The notes under the pieces were generated by a model that was given only the letters and a program-made list of their open reading frames with translations, did no database searches and had not been told where the DNA came from. The position numbers and the translations under genes were made by a program. From Pseudolabrys sp. (GTDB lineage Bacteria > Pseudomonadota > Alphaproteobacteria > Rhizobiales > Xanthobacteraceae), in NCBI GenBank assembly GCA_026125895.1, contig JAHCKG010000019.1, forward strand, positions 27,029-91,028: a DNA stretch of 64,000 nt, given 5' to 3'. Shown piece by piece: positions 22,693-26,805 of the stretch; position 1 is the first letter of the stretch; every line of letters starts with the position of its first letter.

Positions 22693-22797
22693 AATTATGA
22701 TGGGCCGGACCACGAGGGGCGGCCGTTTTGGATGGAAAGGCTTGGCGGCGCGGGCTCCTGATCGGAGCGACGCGGGACCGCCAGGAGGAGAAAGACG

Positions 22798-23271
22798 ATG
22801 GACAAGATTCCGATGACCGCCGCGGGCTACGCCGTGCTGGAACAGGAGCTGAAGCACCGCCAGTCGGTCGAACGCCCGCGTATCATCCAGCAGATCACCG
22901 AGGCGCGCTCGCATGGCGACCTCTCGGAAAACGCCGAGTATCACGCCGCCAAAGAGCAGCAGTCGCTGAACGAGGGCGCGATCGCCGAACTCGAGGACAA
23001 GCTGGCGCGTGCTGACGTCATCGACGTGTCGAAGCTCTCGGGCGACACCATTACTTTCGGCGCCACCGTCACGCTGATCGACGAAGACACCGATGAGAAA
23101 AAGGTGTGGCAGATCGTCGGCGAGCCAGAAGCCAACGCCAAGGCCGGCAAGATCTCCGTCACCTCGCCGATGGCGAAGGCGCTGATCGGCAAGGCCAAGG
23201 GCGCCTCGATTGAGGTCAACGCCCCCGGCGGCGCCAAAGGCTATGAGATCAAGAAGGTGGAGTGGAAGTAG
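22798..23271 (+). CDS. greA: Transcription elongation factor GreA
   Basis: GreA rescues backtracked RNA polymerase by stimulating transcript cleavage. Of 157 residues (normal length), the N-terminal coiled coil carries the family signature [20 protein letters not shown] with the acidic tip residues D and E. The C-terminal FKBP-like domain includes [20 protein letters not shown] and [14 protein letters not shown] strong ribosome site (AGGAGGAGAAAG) precedes the ATG. It ends at a clear intrinsic terminator. Confidence 0.97.
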
Positions 23272-23309
23272 GCTTCCGCCACCGGATTTCACCTGAGAAG
23301 AACCATCTA

Positions 23310-23335
23310 GGCCGGGGCTTGCCCCGGCCATTTTT
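23310..23335 (+). terminator. Intrinsic terminator of greA
   Basis: GGCCGGGGC (23310-23318) and GCCCCGGCC (23321-23329) form a nine-bp stem with a TT loop, followed by ATTTTT. It separates greA from the PatG-type locus, so that locus needs its own promoter. Confidence 0.88.
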
Positions 23336-23397
23336 GTTGACCCGTTGCCCGGCCCGCACGGCGGCCTGGCACCGTGCAGGCTAGCTCATGTTAAGGG

Positions 23398-23426
23398 TTG
23401 CATTTATCTCTTACACAAGTAATAGT
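23398..23426 (+). promoter_or_regulatory. Candidate promoter of the PatG-type locus
   Basis: TTGCAT (23398-23403) and AATAGT (23421-23426) are 17 bp apart in a locally AT-rich stretch 35 bp before the GTG start of the protease. The match to the sigma-70 consensus is moderate (3/6 and 4/6). Confidence 0.4.
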
Positions 23427-23461
23427 TGTGCTTGGATGGATAAACGCCTCTGGAGGCGAGA

Positions 23462-25441
23462 GTGGTCGGACTGCCAGATCAGATCGGCATGCTCGACCCG
23501 CCGGCCCGGCCGGCGGCAACGAATATAGCCGCCGCGCTGAATCTCGATGCCGTCTGGGCGGAAACGCGGGGGGATCCGGGCATTCGCATCGCGATCCTCG
23601 ACGGACCGGTCGACCTCGCGCAGCCGTGTTTCGCCGGGGCCCGGATCTCGACGCTGCCGACCCTCGCCGCCGCCACCGTCGATGACAGCCCGGCCTGTCG
23701 TCACGGCACCCACGTCGCCAGCCTCATATTCGGTCAGCACGGCGGTCCGGTGATCGGCGTGGCGCCGAACTGCACCGGATTGGCGCTCGCGGTGTTTTCG
23801 TCGGGCACCGATACAACGCCGGCACCGTGTTCGCAGCTCGACCTCGCTCGCGCCATCCTTCAGGCCGTCGAATCCGGCGCACACATCATCAACATCAGCG
23901 GCGGCCAGCTAACGCGAACGGGCGAATCCGAGCCGATGCTGGATCACGCCATCGGCGTGTGCGCCGAAGCCAACGTGCTGGTGGCCTGTGACCAGAACGG
24001 TGAGCCGCTCGACGCCAGCAATTGGGGCGCGACCTACCGGCAACATGGCGTGCTGGCGCCCGGGGTGAACATTCCCGGTGCCCTGCCCGGCCAGCGAACC
24101 GGGCTGAAAACCGGGACGAGCTTCGCAACGCCGCTCGTCGCCGGCGTCGCTGCCCTGCTTCTGAGCGCGCAACTCAAGCGCGGCGAGGCGCCGGATCCGC
24201 GCGCCGTGCGTGCGGCCCTGCTCGGCAGCGCCTTTCCGTGCAATCCGCAGCAAATCCGCGACTGCCGCCGCTTTCTTGCCGGACGGATCAACCCGGCCGG
24301 CGCCCTCGATCTCATTGGCACACACATCAAACCGAGTGGGGGAGTACCGACCATGAATGACACAACCGCATTGATGCCGAGCCTGTCGCCGGAAAATCCC
24401 GAAACAATCGCCCCGGGCATCGCTCATGAAACGGCGCGCACAACGCCGCCGGAAACGCGCGTCTTTGCATCGGAAACACGCGCGCCGGATCAACGGAACG
24501 TGGCACCGCAGGAAACCTTGCCCGGGGCGGCGATCCTGCCCGACGGCGTGAACCTTTCCGATTGCGGCTGCGGTTGCGGCGGCGGCAGTAGCAGCGGCAA
24601 GGAAAGCTGTTCATGCGCCGGCAATAAAACCGTGCAGCTCGTCTATGCGCTCGGCAAGCTCGGCATTGATTTCGGCACAGAAGCACGCCGCGACCGCTTC
24701 ATTCAGTACATGGGCGATGCCGCGGCGCCGTACGATCCCGTCAGACTCGGCGCTTATCTCAATGATAATCCGGACGAAGCCGCTTCGCTGATCTGGACTC
24801 TCAATCTCGACGCCACGCCGATCTACGCCATCGTGCCGTCGGGACCTTTCGCCGAGCTGGGCTATCGCCGCCTGCGCGAGGTTCTCGACGGTCAGACCAA
24901 GAAGGACGGCGTCGAGATGGTATCGGTGCCGGGCTATGTCGGCGGCAGCGTTACGTTGATGTCGGGGCAGAAAGTGCCGCTGATCGCGCCAGCCATCCGC
25001 GGGCTGCACGCCTGGTCGATCGGCGCGCTGATCAAGAGCGTGCTCGGCGCGAGGCCGCGCGCGGAAGCCGAACAATCTCTCTACGACGCGCGCGCGTCCG
25101 GCGTCAGCAATTTCCTGTCCCGCGTCTACTACGACCTCCGCAACCTCGGACTGACCGGATCGGAGCGGGCGCTCAACTACGCCGCCACCAACGCCTACCA
25201 GGCTTCGCAGGTCATTACGATGGCCGGCAGCGAGGGCCGCGAACTCGATACCATCGTCGTGCGCAAGAGCCCGGTCTGCCGGCCCGACTCCGAGTGCTAC
25301 GACGTCGAGGTGAGCTTCTTCGGACCGGACAACGTGCTCAAGGCCAACCGGGTCTTCCGATACACGGTGGATGTCAGCGACGTCATCCCGGTCACGATCG
25401 GCGACATCCGCACCTTCGCCAAGCGCGGCTCAGGTACATAA
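23462..25441 (+). CDS. Subtilisin fused to PatG-type C-terminal region (cyanobactin-maturation-protease-like)
   Basis: A 659-residue protein with two parts. Residues about 25-290 are an S8 subtilisin domain with the triad D47 (IAILDG), H81 (HGTHVA) and S220 (GTSFATP), plus substrate-cleft IINISGG. A Pro/Thr-rich linker leads to a Cys cluster CGCGCGGG and CSC (368-385). Residues about 388-652 closely resemble the C-terminal region of cyanobactin proteases PatG/PatA: VQLVYALGKLGIDFGTEARR, EAASLIWTLNLDATPIYAI, FLSRVYYDLRNLG, ALNYAATNAYQA, VFRYTVDVSDVIPVTIGD. In cyanobactins PatA cleaves the leader and PatG macrocyclises. The GTG start at 23462 has GGAGG five bases ahead. No signal peptide is seen. 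Two precursor-like peptides follow; no cyclodehydratase or exporter is adjacent. Confidence 0.85.
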   Translation: MVGLPDQIGMLDPPARPAATNIAAALNLDAVWAETRGDPGIRIAILDGPVDLAQPCFAGARISTLPTLAAATVDDSPACRHGTHVASLIFGQHGGPVIGVAPNCTGLALAVFSSGTDTTPAPCSQLDLARAILQAVESGAHIINISGGQLTRTGESEPMLDHAIGVCAEANVLVACDQNGEPLDASNWGATYRQHGVLAPGVNIPGALPGQRTGLKTGTSFATPLVAGVAALLLSAQLKRGEAPDPRAVRAALLGSAFPCNPQQIRDCRRFLAGRINPAGALDLIGTHIKPSGGVPTMNDTTALMPSLSPENPETIAPGIAHETARTTPPETRVFASETRAPDQRNVAPQETLPGAAILPDGVNLSDCGCGCGGGSSSGKESCSCAGNKTVQLVYALGKLGIDFGTEARRDRFIQYMGDAAAPYDPVRLGAYLNDNPDEAASLIWTLNLDATPIYAIVPSGPFAELGYRRLREVLDGQTKKDGVEMVSVPGYVGGSVTLMSGQKVPLIAPAIRGLHAWSIGALIKSVLGARPRAEAEQSLYDARASGVSNFLSRVYYDLRNLGLTGSERALNYAATNAYQASQVITMAGSEGRELDTIVVRKSPVCRPDSECYDVEVSFFGPDNVLKANRVFRYTVDVSDVIPVTIGDIRTFAKRGSGT

Positions 25442-25447
25442 CGGTTT

Positions 25448-25466
25448 CAGACGCCGCAAGCGTCTG
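25448..25466 (+). other. Intercistronic hairpin 1 (protease to precursor 1)
   Basis: CAGACGC (25448-25454) pairs with GCGTCTG (25460-25466) around a CGCAA loop, seven bases after the protease stop. It has no U-run. It could mark a processing or partial-termination point that uncouples peptide from protease expression. Confidence 0.45.
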
Positions 25467-25524
25467 CGGGTCATGCCCGTACCCCGAAACAAACGCGGGC
25501 GATCGAGAGCGTAGGAGACCATCC

Positions 25525-25695
25525 ATGAACCTTCCCAAGCAATCGGCGCCGGTCCGGCGCAACGCATCGGTGTCGGGTGTCAGGAGCAACGGCATCGCGC
25601 CGTCCGACTGCTGCGGATCCGGCAGTTGCTGCGTCGGCGCGTGCCTGTTCGGCCATTGCGCCGGGGCCTGCGTCCCGAATATCGGGCAGTGCTGA
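25525..25695 (+). CDS. Candidate cyanobactin-like RiPP precursor 1 (Cys-rich)
   Basis: A 56-residue ORF with a good ribosome site (TAGGAGACC, ATG at 25525). Its leader begins MNLPKQSAPVRRNAS, matching the pattern LPxQxxPVxR found in cyanobactin precursors such as PatE (LPQQGQPVIR). The C-terminal half is the likely core, with eight Cys (29, 30, 35, 36, 40, 45, 49, 56), including two CxxxC units (CVGAC and CAGAC), and it ends in Cys. There is no AYDG-type macrocyclisation signal. It lies 83 bp after the PatG-type protease. The leader and context support a peptide substrate; the modification and activity are unknown. Confidence 0.72.
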   Translation: MNLPKQSAPVRRNASVSGVRSNGIAPSDCCGSGSCCVGACLFGHCAGACVPNIGQC

Positions 25696-25721
25696 CCTCT
25701 TCGCTGGCATCGCGCCACGGA

Positions 25722-25749
25722 CGCGTTCGCTGACAGCCCGGCGAGCGCG
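25722..25749 (+). other. Intercistronic hairpin 2 (between the precursors)
   Basis: CGCGTTCGC (25722-25730) pairs with GCGAGCGCG (25741-25749) with one G-U, loop of ten bases, followed after a few bases by TTTT. It resembles a weak terminator or processing stem between precursor genes. Confidence 0.4.
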
Positions 25750-25784
25750 CCCGTCCTTTTCCCAATCAACCGGAGATCAAGAAG

Positions 25785-25961
25785 ATGAATCTTCCTTTGC
25801 AAGCGCCACCCGTCAGCCGCCAGGCAAGCACGCATCATTACAGCGCGGGGCACATTGCCGGTTCAGGCATCGCCTGCACGATATGCCGCGCCGCCTGCGA
25901 CCAACTCGGCGGCATCGCCAAGCAGCTCTGCCTCGCGGCCTGTGACCGGACGGTGTGCTGA
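25785..25961 (+). CDS. Candidate cyanobactin-like RiPP precursor 2 (Cys-rich)
   Basis: A 58-residue ORF preceded by CGGAGATCAAGAAG. The leader MNLPLQAPPVSRQAS shares ten of its first fifteen residues with precursor 1 (M, N, L, P, Q, P, V, R, A, S) and keeps LPxQxxPVxR. The core has six Cys (31, 34, 38, 49, 53, 58), with CRAAC and CLAAC forming a CxxxC-x10-CxxxC hairpin pattern, and ends in Cys. The leaders are alike while the cores differ, the usual sign of a precursor family worked on by one enzyme. A GC-rich hairpin ten bases after the stop probably ends the transcript. Confidence 0.72.
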   Translation: MNLPLQAPPVSRQASTHHYSAGHIAGSGIACTICRAACDQLGGIAKQLCLAACDRTVC

Positions 25962-25970
25962 CCGCGTCGC

Positions 25971-25995
25971 GGCGACCGCGAAATCCGCGGTCGCC
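25971..25995. terminator. GC-rich hairpin after precursor 2
   Basis: GGCGACCGCG (25971-25980) pairs with CGCGGTCGCC (25986-25995) around AAATC. It lacks a T-run, but sits between converging genes, ten bases after the precursor 2 stop and eight before the racemase stop. It is a probable transcript end or RNA-stabilising stem. Confidence 0.5.
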
Positions 25996-26003
25996 GTCGT
26001 CCC

Positions 26004-26729
26004 TCACGCCACCTTCTGGAATAACGAACCCCAGCCCGTAACGCGTTTGGGATCGGCACCGGCAACAATCAAGCTCTTCCACACCACCGTGGCGATTGTG
26101 TCATAGATCGGCAGGCCGGTAGCGCGCTCCAGCTTTTTGATCAGCGGCGCCGCACGCAGATTGGTGCAGATGATGGCAATCGCCTGCGGCTTTGCCTTGG
26201 CAACGTCCATTGTCATCTCCTCGAGTTGCTGCGGCTCGACCTCGGCGAATGAGAAGTTGTCTTGCAGGTTGAGATGACGCTCGGCGGCGCAGCCGACTCC
26301 GAGGCTTTCGTAATTGGCCAGAATCTTCCGCTGCACGTCGTCGCGATAAGGCGTGACATAGCCGAGCAGGGTGACGCCGGTCTTCTCCAGTATCTCGTTG
26401 AGCGCCAGCATCGACGTCGTCGCTGGAATGCCGGTTGCCGCCCTAATGCGCTCGCACAGCTTCATGTCGCGCTCGAAGCCGAGCCAGCCCGATGACGTGC
26501 CGTTCCAGCCGATGCAATTCACCTTGGCATGCGCCAGCAGTTCGGCAGCGCGGAGAATCTCGCTGTCGTCGAACTGCGCCAGTGCACTCGGCGACAGCGC
26601 GATCTCCGTCACCTTGAAGCGCGAGAAATGCGCCGACACGTCCGGCAGACCGGCGACCATCGCCTGCGTGATCGGCTCGAGCGCCGTGTTCGACGACGGC
26701 GTTAGCATGCCCAGCAAGACCCGCTTCAT
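26004..26729 (-). CDS. Aspartate/glutamate racemase family protein (maleate isomerase-like)
   Basis: A 241-residue two-domain protein of the Asp/Glu racemase superfamily, closest to the maleate cis-trans isomerase/arylmalonate decarboxylase branch (LGMLTPSSNTALEPITQAM opening). The C-terminal catalytic Cys is visible in AIIICTNLRAAP. At the N-terminal catalytic position the sequence reads WNGTSSGWLG, with no Cys inside the GTS motif; a Cys stands a few residues earlier (VNCIG). It may be an isomerase, decarboxylase or racemase; the substrate is not given. It converges on the peptide locus but is not obviously part of it. Confidence 0.78.
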   Translation of the reverse strand: MKRVLLGMLTPSSNTALEPITQAMVAGLPDVSAHFSRFKVTEIALSPSALAQFDDSEILRAAELLAHAKVNCIGWNGTSSGWLGFERDMKLCERIRAATGIPATTSMLALNEILEKTGVTLLGYVTPYRDDVQRKILANYESLGVGCAAERHLNLQDNFSFAEVEPQQLEEMTMDVAKAKPQAIAIICTNLRAAPLIKKLERATGLPIYDTIATVVWKSLIVAGADPKRVTGWGSLFQKVA

Positions 26730-26805
26730 GGCCGCATCCTCGGCTGCCGACGATAACGATGGCGTTCATCGTGCCCGCGCCAAAGTGTGATGTCGAGCGG
26801 TCTGC

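What the first reader, a model, noticed from the sequence alone, without database searches (positions are those of the whole stretch)
23462..25961. Minimal cyanobactin-related RiPP locus in an alphaproteobacterium
One ORF joins a complete subtilisin triad (D47, H81, S220) to a region that closely tracks the C-terminus of PatG (FGTEARR, SLIWTLNL, YYDLRNLG, FRYTVDVSDVIPVT). Two tiny Cys-rich ORFs follow directly. The usual cyanobactin partners (YcaO cyclodehydratase, oxidase, prenyltransferase) are absent: greA lies upstream and a racemase-like gene downstream. The locus has its own promoter and lies between a terminator and a hairpin, as a self-contained cassette. The sequence features are seen; membership of the PatA/PatG family is from established knowledge; function as a peptide-maturing system is inferred.
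Basis: partly seen in the sequence, partly recalled or inferred. Interest (0 to 1): 0.92.

Follow-up and report, generated by a model that had tools for sequence, protein, structure and literature searches.

The report
Cyanobactin-type peptide cassette outside cyanobacteria
An alphaproteobacterium carries a small gene cassette, related to the machinery that trims cyanobacterial ring peptides, which seems built only to cut short cysteine-rich peptides free of their leaders; the cutting enzyme in this particular copy looks damaged.

Summary
The observation largely holds. ORF 23462-25441 is a PatA/PatG-family protease (TIGR03895, 580 bits, cut-off 421). The two small ORFs carry a cyanobactin-type leader (LPxQxxPVxR); ORF A has a PatA-type cut site (GIAPS|DCC), ORF B a looser one. 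I compared 22 stand-alone proteases (17 alphaproteobacterial with the window, 3 cyanobacterial, 2 Streptomyces): 18 of 22 have such ORFs downstream by a strict pattern, the other 4 diverged versions by eye.

The protease is PatA-like, not PatG-macrocyclase-like. Cores run to the C-terminus without a PatG follower; no YcaO was found in the held genome. Best reading: leader cutting that frees linear, probably disulfide-bonded peptides.

The type II core is conserved (88%, pN/pS 0.14), its leader variable (41%). New variant of a known kind.

The parts
23462..25441 (+). PatA/PatG-family protease, 659 aa, GTG start
23543..24316 (+). S8 (subtilisin) domain, residues 28-285, PatA-like; triad D47, H81, S220
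23983..23984 (+). junction where about 25 residues present in relatives (with the oxyanion-hole Asn) are missing, between residues 174 and 175
24545..24559 (+). copy of the precursor cut site in the protease linker (GVNLS, residues 362-366)
24560..24625 (+). Cys-rich linker stretch (residues 367-388) that follows the linker site
24635..25426 (+). PatG-type C-terminal domain (residues 392-655; PF18047 and PF18065)
   Evidence: 4uvq, 220 bits
25525..25695 (+). precursor ORF A (type II), 56 aa, 8 Cys
25525..25605 (+). leader of ORF A, ending in the site GIAPS
25606..25692 (+). predicted core of ORF A, 29 aa
   Evidence: cut inferred
25785..25961 (+). precursor ORF B (type III), 58 aa, 6 Cys
25866..25958 (+). 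predicted core of ORF B, 31 aa; its two halves are a 37-nt repeat at 73% identity; predicted two helices
   Evidence: cut inferred
23310..23339 (+). terminator of greA, left edge of the cassette (ancestral, not part of it)
25968..26001 (+). stable hairpin after ORF B

Best explanation
A leader-cutting cassette derived from the cyanobactin family. A single PatA-type protease with a PatG-type C-terminal domain recognises small precursors through an N-terminal LPxQxxPVxR leader and cuts after a G-[VIL]-x-[PA]-[SA] type site, freeing a linear peptide that runs to the natural C-terminus. Cys-rich cores would then fold through disulfides, ORF B probably as a helical hairpin. Shown: family membership, leader and site motifs, precursors lying next to the protease, no YcaO in the held genome. 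Inferred: the cut itself, disulfides, export, and a bacteriocin-like or otherwise membrane-active role. In this genome the protease lacks the oxyanion-hole segment, so this copy is most likely impaired or decaying, unless the assembly is wrong there.
For: Protease family and PatA-likeness: 255 bits to PatA 4h6v against 134 to PatG macrocyclase 4h6x/4aks. Leader pattern in 32 of 104 small ORFs downstream of 22 proteases against 3 of 897 control ORFs; two of those three are further Streptomyces precursors by eye. Published PatA consensus G(L/V)E(A/P)S, with PatG cutting before AYDG (PMC10885120, passages); of 45 hand-picked sites 38 have V/I/L at P4, 41 S/A at P1, 33 P/A at P2, 22 G at P5. In the alphaproteobacterial Cys-rich types I to V the ORF ends at, or within about five residues of, its last Cys, with no AYDG-like follower. 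Type II: core pN/pS 0.14, 88% identity; leader 0.73, 41% (8 sequences). The type II profile gave clear matches (E below 1e-4) in 4 of 394 genomes of the order, and those 4 also have the PatG_C domain. Three congeners have greA and the racemase gene side by side without the cassette.
Against: The window protease lacks about 25 core residues, and two of the other 21 relatives also have damaged proteases (L037, L047). No cleavage was seen; motifs are sequence evidence only. ORF B's site (HIAGS) is a poor match. Among ORFs of 100 aa or more within 6 kb in 22 loci, no export, immunity or disulfide-forming partner is shared; the two most widespread clusters are antisense ORFs within the protease, and the next is a lepA-like neighbour in six loci. 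NCBIfam precursor models match only weakly and below their cut-offs (E 0.03-0.98). Precursor ORFs with another, Cys-poor pattern (type VI, L035-L037) have no role in this reading.
Confidence: 0.72

Rival explanations
1. The cassette in this genome is a decaying remnant: the protease is dead and the two ORFs survive only for now.
For: In-frame loss of about 25 residues including the oxyanion-hole Asn; no second protease of this family in the held genome; damaged copies also in L037 and L047.
Against: The frame is otherwise open over 659 aa and the C-terminal domain, leaders and cores are intact; the genome is an 82% complete draft with 5% contamination, so an assembly error or an unseen second copy is possible.
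Confidence: 0.5
2. The protease domain acts as a leader-binding or chaperone protein rather than a cutter, with the Cys-rich linker and cores acting in metal binding or redox chemistry.
For: Cys-rich linker in the protease beside Cys-rich cores; strong conservation of the type II core, unlike a variable toxin; broken catalytic core here.
Against: Triad and oxyanion motif are kept in the relatives; Cys-free cores in L050 and Streptomyces; the site motif matches the published PatA site.
Confidence: 0.12
3. A true cyanobactin pathway whose macrocyclase and tailoring genes lie elsewhere in the genome.
For: Shared leader and N-terminal cut site; the genome is incomplete.
Against: No YcaO and no second PatA/PatG-type protease in the held genome; precursors lack a follower; 21 other stand-alone loci have the same layout.
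Confidence: 0.06
4. The small ORFs are chance ORFs beside an unrelated housekeeping protease.
For: NCBIfam and Pfam give no family above cut-off for them.
Against: 32 of 104 against 3 of 897 for the leader pattern; purifying selection on the type II core.
Confidence: 0.01

Closest known systems
PatA, the N-terminal cyanobactin protease (PDB 4h6v, 4h6w, 3zxx, 3zxy)
   Same: S8 domain, 253 to 255 bits; same triad; matching cut site; PatA also ends in a PatG-type DUF (PMC4259220, passages)
   Different: Stands alone, without PatG or PatD; the window copy lacks the oxyanion-hole segment. The one canonical PatA compared (Gloeothece, L046) also has a short site-like stretch in its linker (SASGCGC), so the linker site may be older than this group
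PatG (macrocyclase 4h6x, 4aks, 4akt; DUF 4uvq)
   Same: C-terminal domain, 220 bits to 4uvq
   Different: Protease half far less similar (about 131 to 134 bits); no AYDG-type follower in the precursors
Cyanobactin precursors (TIGR03678, TIGR04446)
   Same: Leader of LPxQxxPVxR type and a G(V/I)xPS site; weak model matches over the leader
   Different: Type II core conserved and leader variable; longer cores. The review gives 3 to 20 residues for cyanobactins (PMC4663559, passages)
Cyanobactin peptidase of Roseomonas oryzae (PMC8776678, one passage)
   Same: A cyanobactin-type peptidase in an alphaproteobacterium, already in print, with a new cyanobactin-like peptide suggested
   Different: The passage names no precursors, leader, cut site or linker
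Alpha-hairpinin peptides (vicilin leader and vicilin-buried peptides 7lxk, 7uv2, 6o3q)
   Same: ORF B core predicted as two helices (residues 27-38 and 44-56) with Cys on both; these entries head the fold search (the name alpha-hairpinin is recalled)
   Different: Matches not significant (best E 2.7; none below 0.001)

Membership tests
PatA/PatG cyanobactin maturation protease (TIGR03895) | score above the curated cut-off | tested here: met
   580.2 against 421.05 bits
PatA/PatG cyanobactin maturation protease (TIGR03895) | Asp-His-Ser triad | tested here: met
   D47, H81, S220 aligned
PatA/PatG cyanobactin maturation protease (TIGR03895) | complete S8 core with the oxyanion-hole Asn (needed for an active enzyme; role recalled) | tested here: not met
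   missing in the window, present in 21 of 21 other S8-bearing rows. Homology stands; 'active protease' does not, for this copy
PatA/PatG cyanobactin maturation protease (TIGR03895) | PatG-type C-terminal domain | tested here: met
   PF18047, PF18065; 4uvq
Cyanobactin gene cluster | both an A and a G protease | tested here: not met
   one PatA-like protease; one match in the held genome. Requirement from PMC4663559 passages
Cyanobactin gene cluster | precursor with leader and N-terminal site (RSII) | tested here: met
   only loosely for ORF B
Cyanobactin gene cluster | C-terminal site (RSIII, AYDG type) after the core | tested here: not met
   cores run to the stop codon
Cyanobactin gene cluster | YcaO heterocyclase (absent from some cyanobactin clusters; PMC4603692, passages) | tested here: not met
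   0 matches in the held genome, 82% complete
Cyanobactin gene cluster | PatB and PatC small proteins | tested here: inconclusive
   the PatB model touches only residues 1-16 of ORF A, E 0.084; no search for PatC was made beyond the two ORFs
Cyanobactin product | macrocyclic or heterocycle-bearing short peptide | not testable with these tools
   needs mass spectrometry

The most novel reading that the evidence does not exclude
A class of ribosomal peptide systems spread over three phyla (Alphaproteobacteria, Cyanobacteria, Streptomyces) uses a cyanobactin-type leader and a lone PatA-type protease with no tailoring enzyme, and the protease carries a built-in copy of its own substrate (cut site plus Cys-rich stretch) in its linker, so that it cuts itself or is held by a pseudo-substrate; enzyme site and precursor sites evolve together.
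Probability: 0.4. Interest if true: 0.75.

Novelty: new variant of a known kind. Interest (0 to 1): 0.6.

Why it matters
If right, the cyanobactin leader and protease form a portable peptide-release module used well beyond cyanobacteria and without cyclisation or heterocycles: a minimal ribosomal peptide system of one enzyme and a few precursors. A 2015 review (PMC4663559, passages) says cyanobactin clusters were known only from cyanobacteria and always encode both A and G proteases. The system would give a simple setting for asking what the PatG-type domain does, a question left open by the structure paper (PMC4259220, passages), and a strongly conserved 29-32 residue, eight-Cys peptide whose target is unknown. 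The linker site that mirrors the precursor site offers a direct test of self-processing.

Tried and rejected
Rejected: chance ORFs; a phage or mobile-element origin for the gene (no viral contigs match; only generic S8 matches in phages, and in PHROGs); a complete cyanobactin cluster; an RNA element (no Rfam match in 22700-26800); foreign base composition (G+C 0.660 against 0.652 for the window; third-position G+C 0.79 against 0.81-0.88 for three neighbours).

Led nowhere: the AlphaFold model of the protease has mean pLDDT 45 and was not used. The fold search with the ORF B model gave nothing significant. The type II precursor found nothing in plasmids. Weak Pfam matches of type I precursors to Acanthaporin (E 0.04-0.05 in 2 of 3 type I sequences given) are below cut-off and were not followed. 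In one search, 14 of 18 matches have E between 6e-4 and 0.01; they are partial and were taken as chance without being looked at one by one, and the first look scored at most 16 candidates a genome.

Rows dropped: L042 (second PatG_C hit of G125, no match to the window protease) is in no count. L046, the canonical Gloeothece cluster, served as comparison and is not among the 22; its own small ORFs gave no strict match. L059, L061, L063 and L005 duplicate L002, L001, L004 and L038. One search left out a diverged second L064 copy (ECCPGG) and the L039 variant from type II. One search left out L037, L047 and the Gloeothece PatG; L050 and the Gloeothece PatA had no label in its change count. One search used 20 of 22 loci (not L037, L047) and left out type IV precursors of five loci and type VI precursors; sites were picked by eye, two have an unknown P1, one (GVEAD) fell into the S class by default, and the shuffle ignores kinship. 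One of 20 loci (L050) goes against the match.

Papers: nine full-text searches were answered; passages of five papers were seen. None described stand-alone PatA-type systems with such precursors; the library holds only open-licence papers, so this is no proof of novelty.
Full report
What is there. ORF 23462-25441 (GTG, 659 aa) exceeds the curated cut-off of NCBIfam TIGR03895, 'PatA/PatG family cyanobactin maturation protease' (580.2 against 421.05 bits). Pfam gives Peptidase_S8 (67.1 bits), PatG_D (50.6) and PatG_C (114.9). Against solved structures the S8 half scores 253 to 255 bits with PatA (4h6v, 4h6w, 3zxx, 3zxy) but only about 131 to 134 with the PatG macrocyclase (4h6x, 4aks, 4akt), and the C-terminal half 220 bits with the PatG DUF (4uvq). 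So it is PatA-like in architecture: protease plus DUF.

A missing piece. The triad (D47, H81, S220) is present. But aligned with five named relatives the window protein lacks about 25 residues between 174 and 175. These hold the AAxGN motif whose Asn forms the subtilisin oxyanion hole (recalled). The motif is present in 21 of 21 other S8-bearing rows (20 relatives and the Gloeothece PatA) and absent only from the window. The loss is in frame and the rest of the ORF is open. It is either real, making this copy impaired, or an assembly error in a draft genome (82% complete, 5% contamination, 50 contigs). No second protease of this family was found in that genome.

The small ORFs are precursors. 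ORF A (25525-25695) begins MNLPKQSAPVRR and has GIAPS before a Cys-rich core; ORF B (25785-25961) begins MNLPLQAPPVSR and has HIAGS before its core. Five named relatives and others from searches with the PatG_C model (8 of 397 genomes of the order; 2 of 385 of the class; 2 of 398 of the phylum; 8 of 199 of the family of G371; the window's genome counts in the first three) were read out to several kilobases. Twenty-two stand-alone proteases were compared: 17 alphaproteobacterial including the window, 3 on cyanobacterial plasmids, 2 on Streptomyces plasmids. A strict leader pattern matches 32 of 104 small ORFs with a ribosome-binding-like site within 2.2 kb downstream, in 18 of 22 loci; in control DNA 3 of 897, of which two (Streptomyces L048) look like further precursors. 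The other four loci (L040, L041, L045, L050) have diverged versions, judged by eye.

Cores come in types: I (69-71 aa ORFs, 8 or 9 Cys), II (ORF A), III (ORF B), IV (ORFs at the protease stop codon in five loci), V (short, 42-56 aa) and a Cys-poor type VI. L050 has two Cys-free, hydrophobic cores, and Streptomyces precursors include Cys-free ones. In type II the core is 88% identical with pN/pS 0.14 while the leader is 41% identical with 0.73; type I 0.39 against 0.60; type III 0.53 against 0.70 (substitutions are near saturation, so the ratios are rough). This is the reverse of the hypervariable cores described for cyanobactins (PMC4663559 and PMC4603692, passages).

The cut site. A review gives G(L/V)E(A/P)S as the site after which PatA-like enzymes cut, and AYDG for PatG (PMC10885120, passages). 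Of 45 sites picked by eye in 20 loci, 38 have V/I/L at P4, 33 P/A at P2 and 41 S/A at P1. In the alphaproteobacterial Cys-rich types I to V the ORF ends at or within about five residues of the last Cys, so PatG would have nothing to remove.

A copy of the site in the protease. Between the S8 domain and the DUF the protease itself has a site-like string before a Cys-rich stretch: GVNLS|DCGCGCGG in the window, GIEPS|DCGCGCGG in L064, AVTPS|EC in Gloeocapsa L044, GVRPS|C in Streptomyces L048. Where the precursors read QS (L035, L036, L058) the linker has QQ or QS; where they read PA (L040, L041) the linker has PA. The linker class is among the precursor classes in 19 of 20 loci, against 0 of 20,000 shuffles that reach this (kinship ignored). 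On a tree made without the linker the classes need two changes, so the independent evidence is two events, not 20; L050 disagrees. The only canonical PatA compared also has SASGCGC there, so the feature may be older than this group. Self-cutting or pseudo-substrate inhibition is inference.

Origin. On the tree the alphaproteobacterial proteases and the two cyanobacterial stand-alone ones in it form a supported set (98/98) apart from Streptomyces and the Gloeothece PatA; one Phenylobacterium row lies among the Hyphomicrobiales rows. The greA search gave 30 loci from 41 positive of 43 congeneric genomes; of the 29 that are not the window, three (L066, L069, L084) have the racemase gene about 75 to 110 bp after greA, with greA's terminator in place, so the cassette is an insertion in the window lineage or was lost there. 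Base composition does not stand out.

Structure and function. ORF B's core is predicted as two helices (pLDDT 81-86 in the last three blocks), its two halves being a DNA repeat (73%). The leading fold matches are vicilin leader and vicilin-buried peptides, not significant (E 2.7 and up). Among ORFs of 100 aa or more within 6 kb no shared partner was seen; the largest clusters are antisense to the protease, the next a lepA-like neighbour in six loci (gene name recalled). A bacteriocin-like role is suggested by amphipathic-looking Cys-free cores in relatives; conserved type II cores fit a fixed target or ligand at least as well. This stays open.

Verdict.

Noticed in passing
L050 (G676), 133 and 390 bases after the protease: Two tandem precursors with the leader but Cys-free, hydrophobic small-residue-rich cores that look like membrane-active peptides.
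   Followed up: partly
L048 and L049 (Streptomyces plasmids): Stand-alone PatA-type proteases with several precursors, some Cys-free, with sites such as GVEAS and GIEPS; a BTAD-type regulator gene stands upstream in both.
   Followed up: partly
L037 (G155) and L047 (Nostoc plasmid): The protease is in pieces (L037) or lacks the part of the S8 domain with the catalytic Ser (L047), with precursor ORFs still beside it.
   Followed up: partly
L035, L036, L037, downstream of the protease: A further small ORF with a leader-like start and a shared NPCL-QL-TF stretch (type VI), unexplained.
   Followed up: no
L044 and L047 (cyanobacterial plasmids): A CAP domain-containing protein gene is annotated just upstream of the protease in both.
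   Followed up: no
L042 (G125:C1:1829500-1842000): A second PatG_C protein in one genome, far from the family (25% identity to L041 over the DUF), without an S8 match.
   Followed up: no
window 25866-25947: The two halves of ORF B's core are a 37-nt direct repeat at 73% identity.
   Followed up: partly
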